From Clostridia bacterium (GTDB lineage Bacteria > Bacillota > Clostridia > Oscillospirales > Acutalibacteraceae), in the NCBI GenBank assembly GCA_017516485.1, contig JAFXCH010000047.1:1-39347 (forward strand): 39,347 bases of DNA. The letters are read 5' to 3'. A program made the translations under genes and the position numbers. The number at the start of each line of letters is the position of its first letter. Positions within the stretch are counted from its first letter, which is position 1. Positions 14,637 through 36,976 of this stretch are shown here, piece after piece. A model generated the notes under the pieces. It ran no database searches, had not been told where the DNA came from, and saw nothing but the letters and a program-made list of their open reading frames with translations.

Positions 14637-15893
14637 ATGGCTTGCTTTGTTATAAACGGTCAGAATAAAATTGAAGGCGAAATGACGGTGCAAGGCGCTA
14701 AAAACGGTGCCCTTCCGCTTCTTGCGGCATCCGTGCTTGTCCGTGGAAAAACTGTGCTTTCGGGTTGTCCGCAGCTTACTGATATAACTGCAGCGGCAAA
14801 TATACTTACATATCTCGGATGCAAAGTTTCGGCTTGCGGTGATGTTATGAGTATAGATTCTGAATCCGCTTCCGGTTTTGCCGTTACGGATTCTCTTATG
14901 CACGAAATGCGCTCGTCAATCGTCTTTCTTGGTGCGCTTTTGGGAAGATTCGGAAAAGCCGAACTTACTGCACCGGGCGGATGTGAAATAGGTTTGCGGC
15001 CTATCGATCTTCATCTTGATGCTATGCGTACACTCGGTGCTGTTATTGACGAAACCGGCGGCCGACTTATCTGTTCTTGTCCCGATGGCCTTAAAGGTGC
15101 AAGGATCACGCTTTCGTTCCCGAGCGTAGGTGCAACTGAAAATATTCTGCTGGCAGCTTGTACGGCAAAAGGTGAAACTATTATAGTGAATGCAGCCCGA
15201 GAGCCGGAGATTAAAGAACTTGCCGGTTTTCTCAACAGCTGTGGTGCGGATATCAAAGGTGCAGGCGAGAGTATTATACGTATCAATGGCGTAAAAAAAC
15301 TTACGGCGTGCGAGCACCGTATAGGTCAGGACAGAATTGCGGCTGTTACTTATATGGCTGCCGCAGCAGTTACCGGTGGAAGTATAAGGCTGCATTTTAA
15401 AAATTCCGAAATGCTGATGCCTGTTGCAGAGCCTTTTGAAAAATCGGGTTGCCGTATTATTCAGGATGAAAATGGAGTATGGCTTAAAGCTCCCGAAAGA
15501 CTTAAAAAACTGGGAATGATAAGAACAATGCCGTATCCGGGCTTTCCTACGGATTCCCAAGCAGACCTCGCGGTTATGGCGAGTGTTGCGCGAGGTACGA
15601 GCACTGTTGTTGAAAATATATTCGAAAACAGATTCAAATATGTCGGCGAGTTGAGAAGAATGGGTGCGCAGATACGTACCGAAAATCGGGTCGCCGTAAT
15701 AGAAGGTGTCCGTAAACTTAACGGTGCAAAGGTTGTTTCTCATGACCTGAGAGGCGGTAGTGCACTTGTTGTTGCAGCACTGTGTGCAGAAGGTACTACT
15801 ATTGTTTACGGTATTCATCATATCGATAGGGGTTATGAAAAAATAGAGACACAGCTCAATGGATTGGGAGCGGAAATATTCAGGAAGGAGTAA
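14637..15893 (+). CDS. murA: UDP-N-acetylglucosamine 1-carboxyvinyltransferase
   Basis: A 418-residue EPSP-synthase-fold enzyme that transfers enolpyruvate to UDP-GlcNAc, the first committed step of peptidoglycan precursor synthesis. AKNGALPLLAAS (with the conserved Lys-Asn pair) lies near residues 21-32, and the fosfomycin-reactive catalytic cysteine is present at residue 116 in GGCEIGLRPIDLH. PYPGFPTDSQADL and RFKYVGELRRMGA, both family blocks, follow. The gene lies inside the dcw cluster, between murG and ftsQ; many Firmicutes keep murB here instead. Its stop overlaps the ribosome-site region of ftsQ, starting 4 bp later, so the two are likely translationally coupled. A second murA elsewhere is common in Firmicutes and cannot be judged here. 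Confidence 0.97.
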   Translation: MACFVINGQNKIEGEMTVQGAKNGALPLLAASVLVRGKTVLSGCPQLTDITAAANILTYLGCKVSACGDVMSIDSESASGFAVTDSLMHEMRSSIVFLGALLGRFGKAELTAPGGCEIGLRPIDLHLDAMRTLGAVIDETGGRLICSCPDGLKGARITLSFPSVGATENILLAACTAKGETIIVNAAREPEIKELAGFLNSCGADIKGAGESIIRINGVKKLTACEHRIGQDRIAAVTYMAAAAVTGGSIRLHFKNSEMLMPVAEPFEKSGCRIIQDENGVWLKAPERLKKLGMIRTMPYPGFPTDSQADLAVMASVARGTSTVVENIFENRFKYVGELRRMGAQIRTENRVAVIEGVRKLNGAKVVSHDLRGGSALVVAALCAEGTTIVYGIHHIDRGYEKIETQLNGLGAEIFRKE

Positions 15894-29107: not shown

Positions 29108-30406
29108 ATGAAGTCATTGTGGCGTAAAGATGTTGAAATGCCTGAGTTTCCGATACTTGAAGGCGATGTTAAAACAGATGTGCTGATAATAGGCGGCGGT
29201 ATAGCGGGAATATTGACAGCACATTTTCTGCATGAAAAAGGAGTGCCGTATATACTTGTTGAGAAAAACCGAATCTGCAGCGGTACAACGCAGAATACAA
29301 CTGCAAAAATTACTTCTCAACACGGATTGATTTATCATAAGCTGTTGAATGATTATGGTACAGAAAAAGCTGAAATGTATTACCGTGCTAATGAAAAAGC
29401 ACTTGCAGAGTATAAAAAACTTTGCAACGGTATTGAATGTGATTTTGAAACAAAAGATAACTATGTCTATTCGGTATCGGATAGAAAAGTGCTGGAGCAA
29501 GAGATGACGGCACTCTCAAAAATCGGCTGTAATGCACGGCTTTTTGATTGCTTACCTTTGCCGATAAATACTGCAGGTGCTGTCTCTTTCGGCAATCAGG
29601 GTCAGTTTCATCCGTTGAAGTTTCTTGGGAATGTTGCAAAAAAACTTAATATATTCGAGCATACCTTTGTTCGTGAGATGAAAGGGAATATTGCAATTAC
29701 AGACAGAGCCGTCATTAATGCAAAAAATGTAATTGTTGCAACTCATTTCCCTTTTATCAATAAGCACGGTATGTATTCACTTAAATTATATCAGCATCGC
29801 TCTTATGTGATTGCGCTTGAAAATGCACAGCAGACGGACGGAATGTATGTTGACGAAAGTAAAAACGGTCTTTCTTTCCGTAATTACGGGGATTTGCTTT
29901 TGCTTGGAGGGGGAAGTCACCGTACAGGTAAGGACGGAGGTAATTGGACAGAGCTTCGTAAGTTTGCTGCAAAGCATTATCAGTCATCATCGGAGATTGC
30001 GCACTGGGCGGCACAGGACTGTATGAGCCTTGATTCCATGCCGTATATCGGCAGCTATTCTGCAAATACTCACAGGCTTTTTGTTGCGAGCGGCTTTAAT
30101 AAATGGGGTGTTACGGGTGCAATGGTTGCGGCAAAAATACTTTGTGATTGTGTTATGGAAAATAAAAATGAATACGCTCAACTTTTTTTGCCTGACAGAA
30201 ATATGTTGAGAGTGCAACTCTTGCTGAATGTTGTTGAGTCTGCAGTCGGCTTTGTCGGCTTTACGGGCAAACGTTGTCCTCACCTCGGCTGTTCACTAAA
30301 ATGGAATAAGGCAGAGCATTCTTGGGATTGTCCTTGTCACGGTTCGCGTTTTGATGAGAAGGGGACGGTGCTTGATAATCCGGCAAACGGAGATTTAAAA
30401 AACTAA
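29108..30406 (+). CDS. FAD-dependent (DAO-type) oxidoreductase with C-terminal Rieske [2Fe-2S] domain
   Basis: A 432-residue protein. The dinucleotide-binding motif DVLIIGGGIAGILTAHFL with the following acidic VEKN lies at about residues 24-50, and the glycine-oxidase/DAO fold continues to GFNKWGVTGAMVAAKIL. The last ~60 residues form a Rieske domain with ligands CPHLGC and CPCHGS. Bacillus YhfW-type proteins have this fusion; the substrate is unknown. The Rieske tail ends rather early (PANGDLKN). No signal peptide, so cytoplasmic. ATG 29108 with AAAAAGGTG upstream. It lies alone between the glyA terminator and the small-peptide region. Confidence 0.88.
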   Translation: MKSLWRKDVEMPEFPILEGDVKTDVLIIGGGIAGILTAHFLHEKGVPYILVEKNRICSGTTQNTTAKITSQHGLIYHKLLNDYGTEKAEMYYRANEKALAEYKKLCNGIECDFETKDNYVYSVSDRKVLEQEMTALSKIGCNARLFDCLPLPINTAGAVSFGNQGQFHPLKFLGNVAKKLNIFEHTFVREMKGNIAITDRAVINAKNVIVATHFPFINKHGMYSLKLYQHRSYVIALENAQQTDGMYVDESKNGLSFRNYGDLLLLGGGSHRTGKDGGNWTELRKFAAKHYQSSSEIAHWAAQDCMSLDSMPYIGSYSANTHRLFVASGFNKWGVTGAMVAAKILCDCVMENKNEYAQLFLPDRNMLRVQLLLNVVESAVGFVGFTGKRCPHLGCSLKWNKAEHSWDCPCHGSRFDEKGTVLDNPANGDLKN

Positions 30407-30437: not shown

Positions 30438-30486
30438 AACTATTTGTTAATAAATAGTTGACACGTGGTTTACAACTTGTTATAAT
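30438..30486 (+). promoter_or_regulatory. Perfect consensus promoter with palindromic operator, peptide gene 1
   Basis: TTGACA (30458-30463), 17 nt, TATAAT (30481-30486): both boxes and spacing are exact SigA consensus. Directly upstream and overlapping the first two bases of the -35 is a dyad AACTATTT (30438-30445), GTTAAT, AAATAGTT (30452-30459). A dimeric repressor or activator could bind there. Ribosome site GGAGGT lies at 30505-30510. Confidence 0.85.
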
Positions 30487-30519
30487 TTAGTTAATAAAAA
30501 ACTCGGAGGTGAAACAGTA

Positions 30520-30666
30520 ATGGATCAGATTCTTGCATTTGTAGAGCAGCTCCTTTCTTACCTCAACGAGGGTGAGGCTGCAGATATCGTCGGTATGGTT
30601 AAGGATTCCGGTGTTGTTGAAATCGTTGTTAACTTCTTCAAGAGCATTTTCGAAATGTTCGCATAA
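30520..30666 (+). CDS. Small anionic amphipathic peptide 1 (unknown family)
   Basis: A 48-residue peptide starting MDQILAFVEQLLSYL and ending VVNFFKSIFEMFA. It has 8 acidic residues against 2 lysines, no signal peptide, no cysteine, and two predicted helical stretches split by NEGEAAD and KDSG. The ribosome site GGAGGTGAAAC is followed closely by ATG; the same leader and first codons (GGAGGTGAAAC...ATGGATCAGAT) head peptide gene 2, implying duplication. Codon choice (AAC, TTC, ATC) and its own perfect promoter and terminator suggest abundant expression. Its end motif recurs at the C-terminus of the secreted phosphoesterase at 35840. Size and amphipathic pattern recall beta-type phenol-soluble modulins or leaderless peptides, but no homology is claimed. 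Confidence 0.8.
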   Translation: MDQILAFVEQLLSYLNEGEAADIVGMVKDSGVVEIVVNFFKSIFEMFA

Positions 30667-30694
30667 GATTAACTTATATTTTTCCAACATAACA

Positions 30695-30724
30695 AAAAAG
30701 CAGGCTTTATAAACCTGCTTTTTT
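30695..30724 (+). terminator. Terminator of peptide gene 1
   Basis: AAAAAAGCAGG and CCTGCTTTTTT pair around a short A/T-rich loop, ending in a T-run. It makes the peptide 1 mRNA monocistronic. Confidence 0.92.
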
Positions 30725-30764
30725 GTGTTTTTTCAACGTTTTGTTAAAGAAAAGTAAATTTTAT

Positions 30765-30796
30765 TTGACAAACTGAAAACACAGTGATATAATCAC
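30765..30796 (+). promoter_or_regulatory. Perfect consensus promoter of peptide gene 2 with GTGAT/ATCAC dyad
   Basis: TTGACA (30765-30770), 17 nt, TATAAT (30788-30793), exact consensus with extended -10 TGA. The dyad GTGAT-ATA-ATCAC (30784-30796) brackets the -10 box. A related dyad brackets the -10 of the secreted-protein gene at 31879-31894. Part of GTGAT is explained by the extended -10, so a regulator is not proven. Confidence 0.82.
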
Positions 30797-30832
30797 ACCT
30801 GTAAACGTTTGTATTATGGAGGTGAAACTATA

Positions 30833-30982
30833 ATGGATCAGATCATGGAAATGCTTAAGAGCATCGACTGGGAGCAGGTTATCAACACAATTAAGGATAT
30901 CATTGCTAAGATTGAGGAGTCCGGCATCATCGATAAGGCTATCGCTGCTGTTAAGGATCTCATCGGTATGATCGCTGGCTAA
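30833..30982 (+). CDS. Small anionic amphipathic peptide 2 (unknown family)
   Basis: A 49-residue peptide, paralogous in its leader and first residues (MDQI) to peptide 1. Sequence runs MDQIMEMLKSIDWEQVINTI, then a Lys/Glu-rich amphipathic helix, ESG turn, and a final helix ending KDLIGMIAG. It has 9 acidic residues and 5 lysines, one Trp, no Cys and no signal peptide. Hydrophobic residues recur every 3-4 positions, so it should form two amphipathic helices that could bind membrane or self-assemble. Own consensus promoter and terminator, optimised codons. Possible roles include membrane-active peptide, assembly or signalling peptide; none is shown by the sequence. Confidence 0.8.
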   Translation: MDQIMEMLKSIDWEQVINTIKDIIAKIEESGIIDKAIAAVKDLIGMIAG

Positions 30983-31005
30983 TAAGCTGACGAAATTTGC
31001 TACAT

Positions 31006-31042
31006 AAAAGAAGGCACTTCGCAAGAAGAAGCCTTCTTTTTT
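31006..31042 (+). terminator. Terminator of peptide gene 2
   Basis: AAAAGAAGGC (31006-31015) pairs with GCCTTCTTTT (31031-31040) around a 15-nt loop and continues into T residues. Confidence 0.88.
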
Positions 31043-31122
31043 GTTTTGTAAAACTGATTTTAAAACAGGCTTAATGTTAATTCTTTTCTTCTTTGTCAAT
31101 AATAACGAGGGAGGGGAGATAA

Positions 31123-31842
31123 TTGAGCTTTGAAAAAATTCGTGTCGGCGCGAGGGTAAAACTTATAGGCAGGGTCAGAACAGGCAATCTTCTCGTACTG
31201 TTTTCTGCGTTTTTGCGGTTTAATGTGTATACACTTATTACTCTTCTTTTATTTCGTTTTGATGTTTTGTATAAGAGTGCTTTCGGGAAATTTATTCTTT
31301 CCTTGAGTGTTTTTACTTTGTGTTTAGCGGCATTATTGCTGTTATGTGCACGTACGGTTAAAGACAGGTGGTATGCGGCTATAAGTGAAGGATATTATAT
31401 GAATGTAACTGACTTTATAGCAGGATTTACGCTTCGTGATGTTTTAAATGCTGTTATGTGCGGTGTGATTTCGTCGTTTTTGTCGTTGATACGTATTTTT
31501 ATTTTTTGCAGTATTCCGTCTGTGCTTGCTGTATTGATTATTTTTCTTATGCGTGACGGTGTAAGCCGTGCTGTTCTTTTTATTTTGTTATTCGGATTTG
31601 TTACACTTACTGTATGTTCTGTGCTTTTTCTTACGGTGTCGCTTGGCTGTGTCAGCCTTGCACGCTCACTCTGCTTTTGCAGTACAAATAAATTTATCCG
31701 CATACTCAGCTCGCTTGAAAAAAACTGCTTCAGGCTTTTTTCTTTTTCACTGTTTTTGAGTGCATTTAACCGTTGTTGCCGACGTTTTTCTAAAATAGAA
31801 TTTGCACGTTTTATTCTGCTTTGTGATTATACTTTATTGTAA
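31123..31842 (+). CDS. Unrecognised multi-pass membrane protein in the peptide cluster
   Basis: A 239-residue protein rich in Leu, Phe, Val and Cys. A basic N-terminal segment (about 23 residues) is followed by about five hydrophobic stretches (near residues 24-44, 54-74, 103-125, 127-142, 147-170). It has a Cys/Arg-rich C-terminal region (about residues 210-230, NRCCRRFSK). I recognise no family motif. TTG 31123 has GGGAGGGGAG upstream. No good promoter is seen between the peptide 2 terminator and this gene, so it may depend on readthrough. Codon use is ordinary, unlike the flanking peptide genes, fitting low expression. Position between peptide genes suggests an exporter, receptor or protection partner, but this is inference from context only. 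Confidence 0.75.
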   Translation: MSFEKIRVGARVKLIGRVRTGNLLVLFSAFLRFNVYTLITLLLFRFDVLYKSAFGKFILSLSVFTLCLAALLLLCARTVKDRWYAAISEGYYMNVTDFIAGFTLRDVLNAVMCGVISSFLSLIRIFIFCSIPSVLAVLIIFLMRDGVSRAVLFILLFGFVTLTVCSVLFLTVSLGCVSLARSLCFCSTNKFIRILSSLEKNCFRLFSFSLFLSAFNRCCRRFSKIEFARFILLCDYTLL

Positions 31843-31862
31843 CTTCAAATCGCTTTGGGCTG

Positions 31863-31894
31863 TTGACTTTTTTTGACAGTGATGTTATAATCAC
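31863..31894 (+). promoter_or_regulatory. Promoter of the secreted 116-residue protein gene
   Basis: TTGACT (31863-31868), 17 nt, TATAAT (31886-31891) with extended -10 TGT. GTGAT (31879-31883) and ATCAC (31890-31894) form a dyad with 6-nt centre around the -10, similar to the 3-nt-centred dyad at peptide gene 2. Confidence 0.8.
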
Positions 31895-31951
31895 CTTGTT
31901 AATCAGCTTGTATGGGCTGAAATATTATTTTGTATAAAGGAGTCAACACTA

Positions 31952-32302
31952 ATGAAAAAGGTATTCAAAAAAGCACTTGCAGTAGTTATGTGTGTTGCTT
32001 TGCTCATTTCCGGCACAAGCATTATGTCATTTGCTGCAACATCAGGTGAAAATGTATCAAGCGCTCTCAACGATTGGATTAACGCTATCTCCAACTACAA
32101 GTGGTCCGATTTCTTTGAGTTCATTACAACAATTCTCGGCTTCTTCGGCTTCAAGGGCAGCTTTGAAGGTGTTCACAGCCTTCCCGAGCTTATGACCGAG
32201 TGGTTCGAAATGCTTGGCCCTATCGGCGAAATTTACGATAACTTCATCAACAGCGTTAACACAAGCGAGTTCCTTGCTTTCCTTATGGGCTTCCTTGGTT
32301 AA
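31952..32302 (+). CDS. Secreted small hydrophobic protein (unknown family)
   Basis: A 116-residue protein with a clear signal peptide (MKKVFKKALAVVMCVALLI..., likely cleaved after MSFA near residue 28). The mature ~88 residues are acidic and rich in Phe, Leu, Ile, Gly and Trp: SALNDWINAISNYKWSDFF, ITTILGFFGF, LTEWFEMLG-type helix and a final FLAFLMGFLG. There are no mature cysteines. The stretch around YKWSDFFEFITTIL follows the same spacing of W and I/L/F as peptide 2 (IDWEQVINTIKDII). Codons are strongly optimised; own promoter and terminator. ATG follows AAAGGAG. Probably abundant, extracellular or membrane-associated; function unknown. Confidence 0.85.
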   Translation: MKKVFKKALAVVMCVALLISGTSIMSFAATSGENVSSALNDWINAISNYKWSDFFEFITTILGFFGFKGSFEGVHSLPELMTEWFEMLGPIGEIYDNFINSVNTSEFLAFLMGFLG

Positions 32303-32320
32303 TTAACTGACAGCGTAAAT

Positions 32321-32348
32321 AAAAGCCTCCCAAAGAGGGAGGCTTTTT
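32321..32348 (+). terminator. Terminator between secreted protein gene and fucosidase gene
   Basis: AAAAGCCTCCC (32321-32331) pairs with GGGAGGCTTTT around a 5-6-nt loop, followed by T residues. Only 29 bp separate it from the fucosidase start, too little for a full promoter, so some readthrough seems needed to express the next gene. Confidence 0.92.
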
Positions 32349-32377: not shown

Positions 32378-33688
32378 ATGTACGAAAATAATTGGGAGTC
32401 CCTGAATTCCCGTCCCGTACCCGAATGGTTTGCCGATGCAAAATTCGGCATTTTTATCCATTGGGGTATCTATTCCGTACCTGCATATGCACCTAAAAAG
32501 GACTATGCCGAGTGGTACGGCTATGCCTGCAATATGGAAAATCCCGAAACTGAGGCACAGGTAAAATATAAGGCTCACCATGCAAAATATTACAATTCAA
32601 GACCTTATTATGATTTTATTAATGACTTCACCGGTTACCGTTTCGATGCTGAAAAATGGGCAGATCTCTTTAAGCGTGCAGGCGCAAAGTACATAAACTT
32701 TGTTTCAAAACATCACGACGGTTACTGCCTTTACGAAACAGAGTACGCACCGGGCCTCAACTCTGTAGAGTGTGCTCCGAAGCGTGATTTTATGATGGAA
32801 CTGAAAAACGCTATGGAGGGTACAGGTGTACGTTTCGGTGTTTACCACTCGGTTTATGAGTGGTGGCATCCCTATTACCTTGAAGACCCCGAAAAGTATG
32901 CTCTCGAGCATCTTCATCCCATGTTAAAGGAACTTATAGAGAAATATCAGCCCAATACACTTTTCACTGACGGTGAGTGGGAGCATGAGAGCTCTGTATG
33001 GCATTCAACCGAGTTTTTACAGTGGCTCTATAATGAGTCATCTGTTAAGGATTTCATCGTACCTAACGACCGTTGGGGTAAAGAGACAAGAGGTAAGCTT
33101 GGCGGCAATTTCACTACCGAATACGGTATTATCGATGTTTATCAGGGTCAGCTCAGACGCATTGAAGATGTTGAGCTTGACAGACCTTTTGAAGAGTGCC
33201 GCGGCATAGGCAGCTCATTCGGTATTAACAAGGAAGAGGATTGCGCAAACTACCTTACTCCCAAAGAGCTTCTGGAAACGCTTTGCTCACTTGTATCAAA
33301 GGGCGGCAACTTCCTTCTCAATATCGGTCCGGATGCTGACGGTACAATTCCCGTAATTATGGAAGAGCGTCTTCTTCAGATGGGCGACTGGCTTCGTGTA
33401 AACGGCGATGCAATCTACGGCACCCGTATATATACCAAAAAGCTGCAGGACGGTGTATATTACACCAAGAAGGGCGATGATGTTTATGCAATAATCAACC
33501 GCTTTCCCTTCGGCTCACAGGTGCTTGAGCACGTGCCGTATTCAGCAGACCTCAAAGCAACTCTTCTCGGCAGTGATGCTGTGCTTGAGGTTAAAGATAA
33601 CGAGGGCAGAACAGAGGTTATTTTCCCTGCAATCAACCCCGATACAGTTGACAGCAACTGGCTGTACACAATTAAGCTTTCAAAATAA
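32378..33688 (+). CDS. Alpha-L-fucosidase, GH29
   Basis: A 436-residue glycosidase of family GH29 releasing L-fucose from glycans. Family features: VPEWFADAKFGIFIHWGIYSVPA at the N-terminus, EWYGYACNM, the KHHDGYCLYETEY block, and the retaining nucleophile aspartate at residue 198 in TLFTDGEWEHES. NFLLNIGPDADGTIP follows. There is no signal peptide, so it should act on imported fucosyl-oligosaccharides in the cytoplasm. ATG 32378 with TGGAG upstream. It lies directly behind the terminator of the secreted-protein gene and upstream of a Gfo/Idh dehydrogenase and nagB, fitting host-glycan use. Linkage specificity cannot be told. Confidence 0.95.
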   Translation: MYENNWESLNSRPVPEWFADAKFGIFIHWGIYSVPAYAPKKDYAEWYGYACNMENPETEAQVKYKAHHAKYYNSRPYYDFINDFTGYRFDAEKWADLFKRAGAKYINFVSKHHDGYCLYETEYAPGLNSVECAPKRDFMMELKNAMEGTGVRFGVYHSVYEWWHPYYLEDPEKYALEHLHPMLKELIEKYQPNTLFTDGEWEHESSVWHSTEFLQWLYNESSVKDFIVPNDRWGKETRGKLGGNFTTEYGIIDVYQGQLRRIEDVELDRPFEECRGIGSSFGINKEEDCANYLTPKELLETLCSLVSKGGNFLLNIGPDADGTIPVIMEERLLQMGDWLRVNGDAIYGTRIYTKKLQDGVYYTKKGDDVYAIINRFPFGSQVLEHVPYSADLKATLLGSDAVLEVKDNEGRTEVIFPAINPDTVDSNWLYTIKLSK

Positions 33689-35839: not shown

Positions 35840-36976
35840 ATGAAAAAAATTGTTTCCGTACTTCTCAGCGTATGTTTATTATGTTCTTGCTTTGTTTTCG
35901 GTGTAAGTGCCGAGGATGATGCGTTACGCTTCGGTGATGACGGCAAGTTTACGGTGCTTCAGATTACAGACCCGCAGGATGATGCTTACCCTGCACACGG
36001 ATTAAAAGAATTTATAGAGAAAGCGATAGAAGAAACCGACCCCGATTTTATTGTTATAACCGGTGACATTGTTGAGGACTCGCGTGCAGGTGATATATCG
36101 GACGATAAAATTTTTCAGGAGGGTGTAACCGTTGACGGTGACTATGCCGCAACGCTTGCCAATACTCAAAAAGCCTGTGAAGATTTCTTTGCACCTATCG
36201 AAGCATCGGGTATTCCTTATGCGGTTTCTCAGGGCAATAATGACTATAACAGCGATGTTACAAATGAAGACTGGCTTAAGATTTACTCTTCGTTTCCGAA
36301 TAATATGACTGTTGATATGTCAGACGATGCAGAAGGTAAAATCGACTGTTATATTCCCGTGCTTTCATCCGATTCCGATGAGCCTGCTTTTGGCTTGTGG
36401 ATGCTTGACAACGGCAGAAGTTTCACCGAAAGTCAGCTTGAATGGTTCACGGCTTACGATAACGGAAATGTACCGTCTCTTGTTTTTGAGCACGTACCCG
36501 TTGACGATATAGGCAATCTCTATGAAGAATGCAATATCTGGGATGAGGGTGCAATTATTGACGGTACATCGACTTACCGCCTTAAAGCTGACGTAAGCGG
36601 TCACGCAGAGGGAATTGTAAAGCCCGGTACTACTACGGAGGAGTTTACCGCCTGGAAGAATAAAGGCGTTGTCGGCGCGTTTTTCGGCCATTGGCACACA
36701 AGCGGATTTACCGGAGTGTGGGACGGAATCACACTCGGTATGACCTACGGCTGTCAGTTTTCCAAGGCAGGCCCCTACGGTGTGCGTGCGATAACTATTG
36801 ATGAAAACAGCAGCACAGTAGAAACAGAGCTTTATGTTTATGAAAACGGTGAGTTTACTGTGCAGACAAACGAGCCTTATGCCGAGTATGACAATGCTTT
36901 TGAGCAGACTATGGCAAGTGTAGTCAACTTCTTCAAAAACCTTTTTACAGCGCTCGTTTATCTTCTGAAATTCTGA
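35840..36976 (+). CDS. Secreted calcineurin-like metallophosphoesterase with altered motifs
   Basis: A 378-residue protein with a signal peptide (MKKIVSVLLSVCLLCSCFVF, likely cleaved after GVSA at residue 24; LCSC is a poor lipobox). Metallophosphoesterase blocks appear in order: TDPQDD (44-48, where D-x-H is usual), GDIVED (75-80), GNNDYN (132-137, where GNHD/E is usual), EHVPV (His218), and GHWHT (His284, His286). Two histidines are thus replaced by Gln46 and Asn134. The C-terminus after residue 355 is a hydrophobic tail, SVVNFFKNLFTALVYLLKF-like, matching the end of peptide 1. Substrate unknown (phosphodiester or phosphomonoester). It follows nagB behind a terminator without its own promoter. 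Confidence 0.87.
   Translation: MKKIVSVLLSVCLLCSCFVFGVSAEDDALRFGDDGKFTVLQITDPQDDAYPAHGLKEFIEKAIEETDPDFIVITGDIVEDSRAGDISDDKIFQEGVTVDGDYAATLANTQKACEDFFAPIEASGIPYAVSQGNNDYNSDVTNEDWLKIYSSFPNNMTVDMSDDAEGKIDCYIPVLSSDSDEPAFGLWMLDNGRSFTESQLEWFTAYDNGNVPSLVFEHVPVDDIGNLYEECNIWDEGAIIDGTSTYRLKADVSGHAEGIVKPGTTTEEFTAWKNKGVVGAFFGHWHTSGFTGVWDGITLGMTYGCQFSKAGPYGVRAITIDENSSTVETELYVYENGEFTVQTNEPYAEYDNAFEQTMASVVNFFKNLFTALVYLLKF

What the first reader, a model, noticed from the sequence alone, without database searches (positions are those of the whole stretch)
30438..32348. Cluster of two twin 48-49-residue amphipathic peptides, a multi-pass membrane protein and a secreted hydrophobic protein
Two peptide genes too short for routine annotation share leader and first codons (GGAGGTGAAAC...ATGGATCAGAT), each with a textbook TTGACA-N17-TATAAT promoter and strong terminator, and codon use as biased as PFOR and FtsZ. 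An unrecognised membrane protein and a secreted 116-residue protein (own strong promoter and terminator) complete the set. Anionic amphipathic peptides at this expression level suggest a membrane-active, self-assembling or signalling peptide system, with the membrane protein as possible transporter, receptor or protection factor. The function is inference; the gene architecture is seen directly.
Basis: partly seen in the sequence, partly recalled or inferred. Interest (0 to 1): 0.82.

Follow-up and report, generated by a model that had tools for sequence, protein, structure and literature searches.

The report
Leaderless amphipathic peptides, surface-linked gene cluster
A genus of gut Clostridia carries two very short, apparently very strongly expressed genes for helical, membrane-loving peptides next to a membrane protein and a small secreted protein; the set is conserved and may form a sticky layer on the cell surface, much as certain staphylococcal peptides trap secreted enzymes.

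Summary
Peptides A (30520-30666, 48 aa) and B (30833-30982, 49 aa) are real genes: 12/12 consensus promoters, strong RBS, terminators, codon use like PFOR, purifying selection. Across 11 genomes of the genus, A, membrane protein M and small protein C occur in 11 of 11; B by profile in 8, with a similar short frame in its place in 3. Promoters of A and C are near-consensus in 11 of 11. M lacks one and has the window's worst codon use, so it is no stoichiometric partner. Nothing credible in Pfam, NCBIfam or PHROGs. New here: (i) C has a Sec signal in 8 genomes but is leaderless in 3; (ii) the C domain, with a B-like first part, recurs in a protein with a sortase-like wall anchor, read in 7 of 11; (iii) a related peptide may end a MacAB-like ABC operon (2 of 11 genomes); (iv) secreted proteins of this genome sometimes end in amphipathic aromatic tails (7 of 50, against 0 of 198 cytosolic). 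Best reading (about 0.4): exported, self-assembling surface peptides that retain secreted proteins, working like staphylococcal LspU/PSMs but not shown to be members. Export and function are inferred. 'Anionic' is not conserved.

The parts
30458..30486 (+). promoter of A, TTGACA-N17-TATAAT (12/12)
   Evidence: 11-12 of 12 in 11 of 11 genus genomes
30505..30530 (+). RBS, leader and first codons of A (26-nt repeat shared with B)
30520..30666 (+). peptide A, 48 aa, leaderless, predicted amphipathic helix, no TM segment
   Evidence: 11 of 11 genomes; dN/dS 0-0.26 in 5 pairs; CAI 0.829
30692..30726 (+). intrinsic terminator of A
   Evidence: -17.1 kcal/mol, z -4.75
30765..30793 (+). promoter of B, TTGACA-N17-TATAAT (12/12)
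   Evidence: 10-12 of 12 in 8 of 8 main-clade genomes
30818..30843 (+). RBS, leader and first codons of B
30833..30982 (+). peptide B, 49 aa, paralogue of A (shared C-terminal motif); its N-terminal half resembles the first part of the surface-protein S domain
   Evidence: 8 of 11 genomes by profile; dN/dS 0.05-0.38 in 5 pairs; CAI 0.856
31002..31044 (+). intrinsic terminator of B
   Evidence: -19.3 kcal/mol, z -4.76
31123..31842 (+). M, 239-aa multi-pass membrane protein (TTG start), low codon adaptation, no strong promoter
   Evidence: AF2 pLDDT 85, all-helical; 11 of 11 genomes
31863..31891 (+). promoter of C, TTGACT-N17-TATAAT (11/12)
   Evidence: 11-12 of 12 in 11 of 11 genomes
31952..32302 (+). 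C, 116 aa; signal peptide about 31952-32035 (by eye), mature part about 88 aa, predicted helical and amphipathic; similar to the domain of anchored protein S
   Evidence: (11 of 11 genomes)
32321..32347 (+). intrinsic terminator of C
   Evidence: -18.4 kcal/mol, z -4.68
35840..36976 (+). secreted calcineurin-like phosphoesterase whose last ~30 residues are an amphipathic aromatic tail, alike in 6 of 6 genus orthologues read (possible client; association is inference)

Best explanation
A and B are two paralogous, leaderless amphipathic-helix peptides made in very large amounts. Together with C they are exported and coat the outer face of the cell, where they self- and co-assemble. The same C/B-type helical domain is held on the cell wall by the anchored protein S. 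The layer binds other amphipathic helices, so it keeps secreted enzymes, some of which end in such tails, near the cell. C leaves by Sec in most species; in a sister clade it is leaderless like A and B, so a dedicated route for leaderless helices is assumed (a MacAB-like ABC transporter, or M). M is made in small amounts and acts as accessory (export or self-protection). Shown from sequence: genes, expression signals, selection, co-occurrence, paralogy of A and B, C/S and B/S domain similarity, leadered and leaderless forms of C, tails. Inferred: export of A and B, wall anchoring of S, assembly, retention of enzymes, role of M.
For: A, M and C in 11 of 11 genus genomes; B by profile in 8 and as a frame in place in 3. 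Near-consensus promoters for A and C in 11 of 11 and for B in 8 of 8 main-clade genomes. CAI at PFOR level. For G000-G003 dS is 0.19 (A) and 0.17 (B) against 0.62 (C) and 1.12 (M). Helical periodicity peaks at 90-115 degrees in 23 of 23 sequences tested, with no TM segment. C is Sec-leadered in 8 genomes and leaderless in 3 with the same mature domain. C against S domain: hhalign 33.2, prob 85, 52 permuted controls at most 17.9; B against S 26.4, prob 64, 52 controls at most 15.2. S bears a signal peptide and a [IT]PDTG-hydrophobic-RKR end in 7 of 7 proteins read. B-like tail on a secreted zinc-finger protein in G001. A B-like 40-aa frame ends a MacAB-like operon. Hydrophobic aromatic tails in 7 of 50 predicted secreted against 0 of 198 cytosolic proteins. 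Precedent: LspU traps lipases at the S. aureus surface (PMC12607899; abstract and sections 6, 14, 16 read).
Against: No export route for A and B is shown: no exporter lies in the cluster, and the MacAB-like operon was found in only 2 of 11 genomes. Its peptide matches the B profile only at E 0.02, and in the own genome it reads on without the stop. A shows no similarity to S (11.6; 11 of 52 controls reach it) or to C, and C against B directly shows none. The whole-genome hits of C to S (E 0.004-0.04) are no better than two hits to unrelated-looking proteins in other genera (E 0.035). The A/B paralogy margin is small against reversed-rotated controls (34.3 against at most 30.3). The amphipathicity of A alone is weak against shuffles (z 1.0-1.9). 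Wall-anchor models match S only below their cut-offs. SAL-type lipases read here have no such tail. The tail cut-offs were set after a first look, the signal-peptide rule is crude, and tails could simply be membrane anchors. The leaderless C could mean that C also works inside. The model of C is poor (pLDDT 49).
Confidence: 0.4

Rival explanations
1. A and B are abundant intracellular amphipathic proteins that bind the inner face of the membrane or lipid inclusions (curvature, scaffold or storage role). Only C and S are outside, and the genes are neighbours for co-regulation.
For: A and B have no signal peptide in any of 11 genomes. No exporter in the cluster. A shows no similarity to C or S.
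Against: B resembles part of a domain carried by a surface-type protein and the tail of a secreted protein. C itself swaps between leadered and leaderless forms. A possibly related peptide is encoded in an ABC-transporter operon.
Confidence: 0.25
2. A and B are a two-peptide leaderless bacteriocin, with M as immunity protein or exporter.
For: Short leaderless helical peptides in a pair beside an unrecognised multi-pass membrane protein. Possibly related peptide beside a MacAB-like ABC system.
Against: A and M present in 11 of 11 genomes at a conserved place, not patchy. Charge -6 to +2, not the strongly cationic character of known leaderless bacteriocins (the comparison is recalled). M has the lowest codon adaptation of 32 window genes and no strong promoter, unlike an immunity gene co-expressed with an abundant bacteriocin. 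C and S are unexplained.
Confidence: 0.15
3. A and B are PSM-like surfactants or lytic, immunomodulatory peptides acting on neighbours or on the animal host's mucosa.
For: Size, leaderless amphipathic helices and signs of very high expression resemble beta-type PSMs (recalled). Gut origin of 6 of 7 named relatives.
Against: No match to any PSM model in Pfam or NCBIfam. Nothing here tests activity. A similar domain on an anchored-type protein points to a structural role.
Confidence: 0.12
4. Signalling peptides sensed by M.
For: Pair of short peptides next to a membrane protein.
Against: Consensus promoters and codon use at PFOR level, far above what pheromones need (recalled). M carries no recognised domain.
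Confidence: 0.05

Closest known systems
LspU/LspD and phenol-soluble modulins of Staphylococcus (PMC12607899)
   Same: Leaderless, unannotated, conserved short amphipathic helices. In that paper LspU is exported by the PSM transporters, co-aggregates with PSMs and traps secreted lipases at the surface. In two genomes of our genus (G010, G008) a secreted lipase lies between M and C on the other strand; its best NCBIfam match is the S. aureus YSIRK lipase model NF047351 (E 3.8e-79 and 1.8e-74, under that model's cut-off), and Pfam Lip_C matches above cut-off.
   Different: 36-63 aa against 21 aa for LspU; no detectable similarity to any Pfam or NCBIfam PSM model; own promoters rather than a lipase mRNA; accompanied by M, C and the anchored-type S; other taxon. 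Export and aggregation untested.
Pneumococcal vex123-pep27-vncRS operon (PMC6177237, passages found by term)
   Same: Short peptide encoded with an ABC transporter and a two-component system, as in the G004/G000 MacAB-like operon with its 40-aa peptide and an upstream kinase gene (kinase and permease named by eye). The paper says a recent model has Pep27 secreted by Vex123.
   Different: That operon is not the window's cluster and was found in 2 of 11 genomes; export of its peptide is untested.
Leaderless (class II) bacteriocins (recalled, no call)
   Same: Short helical peptides without leader, often in pairs, with membrane proteins nearby.
   Different: Not cationic; genus-wide core locus; no known exporter or immunity family at the locus.
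Cohesin-dockerin surface assemblies of Clostridia (recalled analogy)
   Same: Would likewise hold secreted enzymes on the cell through a small tail and an anchored receptor, if the assembly reading is right.
   Different: No dockerin or cohesin match in the proteins scanned; helices only; interaction not shown.

Membership tests
Phenol-soluble modulins | short, leaderless, amphipathic alpha-helix without TM segment | tested here: met
   (periodicity 90-115 degrees in 23 of 23; against shuffles A weak, z 1.0-1.9, B 1.2-3.0)
Phenol-soluble modulins | sequence match to a PSM family model | tested here: not met
   Pfam and NCBIfam scans at E up to 1 gave no such match
Phenol-soluble modulins | export by Pmt or AbcA-type ABC transporter | tested here: inconclusive
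   no exporter in the cluster; a B-like peptide ends a MacAB-like operon in 2 of 11 genomes
Phenol-soluble modulins | Agr control, surfactant or lytic activity | not testable with these tools
   needs bench work
Leaderless bacteriocins | cationic peptides with dedicated exporter and immunity genes (criterion recalled) | tested here: not met
   charge -6 to +2 in 11 genomes; M has no credible family match and the lowest CAI
Type I toxin-antitoxin toxins | weakly translated TM peptide with antisense RNA (criterion recalled) | tested here: not met
   consensus promoter, strong RBS, CAI 0.83-0.86, no TM segment; the only minus-strand promoter-like site listed inside B scores 9 of 12; no Rfam match in the window
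Sortase-anchored (LPXTG/NPXTG) surface proteins, for S outside the window | signal peptide plus LPXTG-like motif, TM and basic end | tested here: inconclusive
   [IT]PDTG-hydrophobic-RKR seen by eye in 7 proteins; G000 protein: Rumino_NPXTG E 0.0015, Gram_pos_anchor E 0.011; G004 protein: LPXTG_anchor E 0.4; all under cut-off
DUF975 membrane proteins, for M | match to PF06161 | tested here: not met
   none of 9 M proteins matches; only a remote relative from G053 does, under cut-off, and its own link to M is weak (E 1.1e-6; hhalign prob 52)

The most novel reading that the evidence does not exclude
A non-covalent surface-assembly system of gut Clostridia built only from amphipathic helices: wall-anchored S carries a receptor domain, free A, B and C (one helical family, leaderless or Sec-exported) form the matrix, and secreted enzymes dock by amphipathic C-terminal tails. 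It would be a cohesin-dockerin-like sorting code without cohesins or dockerins, produced at the level of central metabolic enzymes yet missing from the family libraries searched here.
Probability: 0.17. Interest if true: 0.87.

Novelty: new variant of a known kind. Interest (0 to 1): 0.6.

Why it matters
By promoter and codon signals A and B are among the most strongly expressed genes of this window, at PFOR level, in a genus of gut bacteria, yet they match none of the libraries searched. If they are exported they would be a major part of the cell surface in these hindgut Clostridia and extend the PSM/LspU principle (amphipathic peptides that hold secreted enzymes) beyond staphylococci. The natural pair of leadered and leaderless C, and the S domain, make export and assembly directly testable.

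Tried and rejected
Regex for a D[FW]xx-hydrophobic hairpin motif as a common signature: not enriched (1 hit in 71 predicted secreted proteins, 4 in 516 other frames); dropped. SAL-type lipases as tailed clients: no tail seen in the 12 loci read. M as DUF975: not supported. The non-genus hits of the full-length C profile begin at profile positions 1-6, that is in the signal peptide, in nearly all rows; with the signal removed, 4 genus genomes are strong among 250 family genomes and only two other genera reach E 0.05, with unrelated-looking proteins. Order-wide profile of A: 18 of 295 genomes at E up to 0.1, only two genus genomes strong. Other amphipathic promoter-driven small genes in 268.6 kb of the own genome: by eye none but A, B and C in the list. 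PDB by sequence with profiles of A, B and C: nothing convincing. AlphaFold of C: poor. Paper searches showed, in the rows listed, no description of this cluster or of such tails in Clostridia; open-access PMC only and capped lists, so absence from print is not shown. PMC12607899 was read as abstract and sections 6, 14, 16; PMC6177237 as passages; all other papers were seen only as search listings. The secreted/cytosolic split uses a crude home-made signal-peptide rule that lets some cytosolic proteins in; a third group of 15 predicted lipoproteins had 1 (tail) and 2 (motif) positives. In one search, 10 of 11 A, 10 of 11 B and 3 of 12 C sequences were tested.
Full report
What is in the window. 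Between a DAO/Rieske oxidoreductase gene (29108-30406) and an alpha-L-fucosidase gene (32378-33688) lie four + strand genes: peptide A (30520-30666, 48 aa), peptide B (30833-30982, 49 aa), membrane protein M (31123-31842, 239 aa, TTG) and C (31952-32302, 116 aa, signal peptide). A and B have 12/12 consensus promoters and C 11/12. All three are followed by hairpin-plus-T terminators of -17.1, -19.3 and -18.4 kcal/mol, z -4.7 to -4.8. A and B share a 26-nt leader and start. None of A, B, M or C has a credible match in Pfam, NCBIfam or PHROGs (the weak rows have E 0.04 or worse), and profiles of A, B and C find nothing convincing in the PDB (M was not searched there).

They are genes, with signs of very high expression. 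In 11 genomes of the genus (the window's own G000 and ten others) A is found in 11 of 11 by profile (E up to 4.1e-14), C in 11 of 11 (E up to 7.1e-7) and M in 11 of 11 (E up to 8e-70). B is found by profile in 8 of 11 (E up to 4e-23). In G002 only half of it matches (E 0.007); in G008 and G010 a short frame of similar type stands between A and M but the profile does not recognise it, so B's orthology there rests on position. Order is A-B-M-C wherever one contig holds the set; in G010 and G008 a lipase gene on the other strand stands between M and C. In G004 the set is split over two contigs, and both show a copy of the same secreted-protein gene at the break. Substitution patterns show purifying selection: dN/dS 0-0.26 for A and 0.05-0.38 for B in the 5 of 6 pairs each with finite dS. 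For G000 against G003 dS is 0.19 (A), 0.17 (B), 0.62 (C) and 1.12 (M), so silent sites of A and B are themselves constrained. Codon adaptation against eight ribosomal-protein genes is 0.856 (B), 0.829 (A), 0.739 (C) and 0.307 (M), with PFOR 0.858 and FtsZ 0.731; M is the lowest of 32 window genes. The promoter of A scores 11-12 of 12 in 11 of 11 genomes, that of C 11-12 in 11 of 11, that of B 10-12 in the 8 main-clade genomes. In the other three the best site before B scores 8 (G002), 8 (G008) and 10 (G010, where it falls within the end of A), and the scan found no terminator after A in G002 and G008 and only a weak hairpin (-6.8 kcal/mol) inside B in G010, so A and B look like one transcript there. 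G007 also gave no terminator after A in that scan. Among 349 control genes 20 reach 11 or more and 4 reach 12. M has 7-9 of 12 in 10 of 10 examined.

What the peptides are. Hydrophobicity repeats best at 90-115 degrees, the spacing of an alpha-helix, in 23 of 23 sequences tested (10 A, 10 B, 3 C). Against shuffles the signal is weak for A (z 1.0-1.9), moderate for B (1.2-3.0) and good for mature C (2.2-4.4). No 19-residue stretch in them exceeds a mean hydropathy of 1.57, so none looks like a membrane-spanning segment. Charge runs from -6 to 0 (A) and -4 to +2 (B), so the anionic character is a feature of part of the genus only. A and B are paralogues: profile comparison prob 93, score 34.3, against at most 15.6 in 40 shuffles; 12 reversed-rotated controls reached 30.3, so the margin is small against controls that keep the periodicity. 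A of G004 and G007 hit the B profile in whole-genome searches (E 6e-4 and 1e-3).

Three facts that point outside the cell. First, C has a Sec signal in 8 genomes, but in G002, G008 (two copies) and G010 the same domain starts at its own ATG without signal. Second, the C profile's second hit in each of the four genus genomes drawn into (E 0.004-0.04, among 250 family genomes) is one orthologous protein, S: signal peptide, acidic linker, a helical domain, a second linker and an [IT]PDTG-hydrophobic-RKR end. Two hits in other genera have E 0.035 and looked unrelated, so these E-values alone prove little. With the B-profile hits, S was read in 7 of 11 genomes; the other four were not searched with S itself. 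The better evidence is the profile comparison: the S domain matches C with score 33.2 (prob 85) where 52 permuted controls reach at most 17.9; its first part matches B with 26.4 (prob 64) where 52 controls reach at most 15.2; A does not match it (11.6; 11 of 52 controls reach that). C against B and C against A directly give nothing. Wall-anchor models match S only below their cut-offs. Third, a secreted zinc-finger protein in G001 ends in a B-like stretch (single-sequence E 1.4e-5, profile E 4e-4).

A possible export route. A 40-aa B-like frame (profile E 0.022) lies 25 bases after the ATPase gene of a MacAB-like operon in G004, which also has a membrane-fusion protein and, by eye, a permease and part of a kinase gene. 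The operon occurs in 2 of 11 genomes, one being the window's own (G000:C55), where a similar frame follows but reads on without the stop. This is a lead, not proof, for A and B.

Tails. In a sample of 680,949 bases of the own genome, 7 of 50 predicted secreted proteins and 0 of 198 predicted cytosolic ones end in a strongly hydrophobic aromatic 25-mer (Fisher p 9.5e-6); an FF-x-x-[LI]-F-like motif in the last 30 residues occurs in 6 of 50 against 2 of 198 (p 0.001). The cut-offs were set after a smaller first look with other cut-offs (6 of 30 against 0 of 83), so the p-values flatter. The phosphoesterase at 35840-36976 has such a tail, as have all six orthologues read in genus loci, this one included. 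The tails may be membrane anchors with no link to A and B; the link is inference.

Outside the genus. In other genera of the family I saw an A homologue in G013 (45 aa, E 5e-10) and weaker relatives in G025 (57 aa, E 3.6e-4) and G013 (40 aa, E 0.17). In an order-wide sample 18 of 295 genomes match the widened A profile at E up to 0.1, only the two genus genomes strongly. Of 7 named records encoding C, 6 are MAGs from goat, sheep and water-deer cecum, colon or rectum and one is an uncultured Oscillospiraceae.

M. AlphaFold with 8 sequences gives a confident all-helical model (pLDDT 85, pTM 0.71); hydropathy shows about four membrane segments. No credible family match for any of 9 members (one phage-holin hit, E 0.025).

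Reading. Best supported is a PSM/LspU-like principle: abundant amphipathic helices working at the surface, where the literature shows one such peptide trapping lipases (PMC12607899). In two genomes of the genus a lipase gene of the SAL type stands inside this cluster, which may be coincidence, since each of the 11 genomes holds 1-6 matches to that lipase. Family membership fails on sequence. I give 0.4 to surface assembly with retention of secreted proteins, 0.25 to an intracellular membrane or scaffold role, 0.15 to a leaderless bacteriocin, 0.12 to a surfactant or lytic role, and 0.05 to signalling.

Noticed in passing
L259, L260, L261 (G000:C63, G003:C38, G004:C5): Frames of 554-583 aa that fuse an N-terminal helix-turn-helix-like region to a SAL-type lipase domain (the HTH call is by eye).
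   Followed up: no
L225, reverse complement 15272-15802 (G001:C51): Secreted 176-aa protein with C2H2-type zinc-finger matches (PF00096, E 2.6e-8) and a B-like C-terminal stretch.
   Followed up: partly
L173 6407-7684; L232 9570-12956 (own genome): Secreted proteins ending in striking aromatic amphipathic tails; the first has no Pfam or NCBIfam match at E 0.01.
   Followed up: partly
L134 9231-10425 (G013:C18): A-like peptide followed by a 228-aa secreted protein with a hydrophobic end and no family match at E 0.01.
   Followed up: partly
29108-30406: DAO-type oxidoreductase with a C-terminal Rieske domain just upstream of A; in this position in G000, G003 and G001, while in the other 8 genus loci glyA directly precedes A.
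   Followed up: no
L230 1969-5403 and L224 (own genome C55, G004 C12): MacAB-like operon with a Met/Pro/Glu-rich lipoprotein-like gene and a B-like short frame at its end; 2 of 11 genus genomes.
   Followed up: partly
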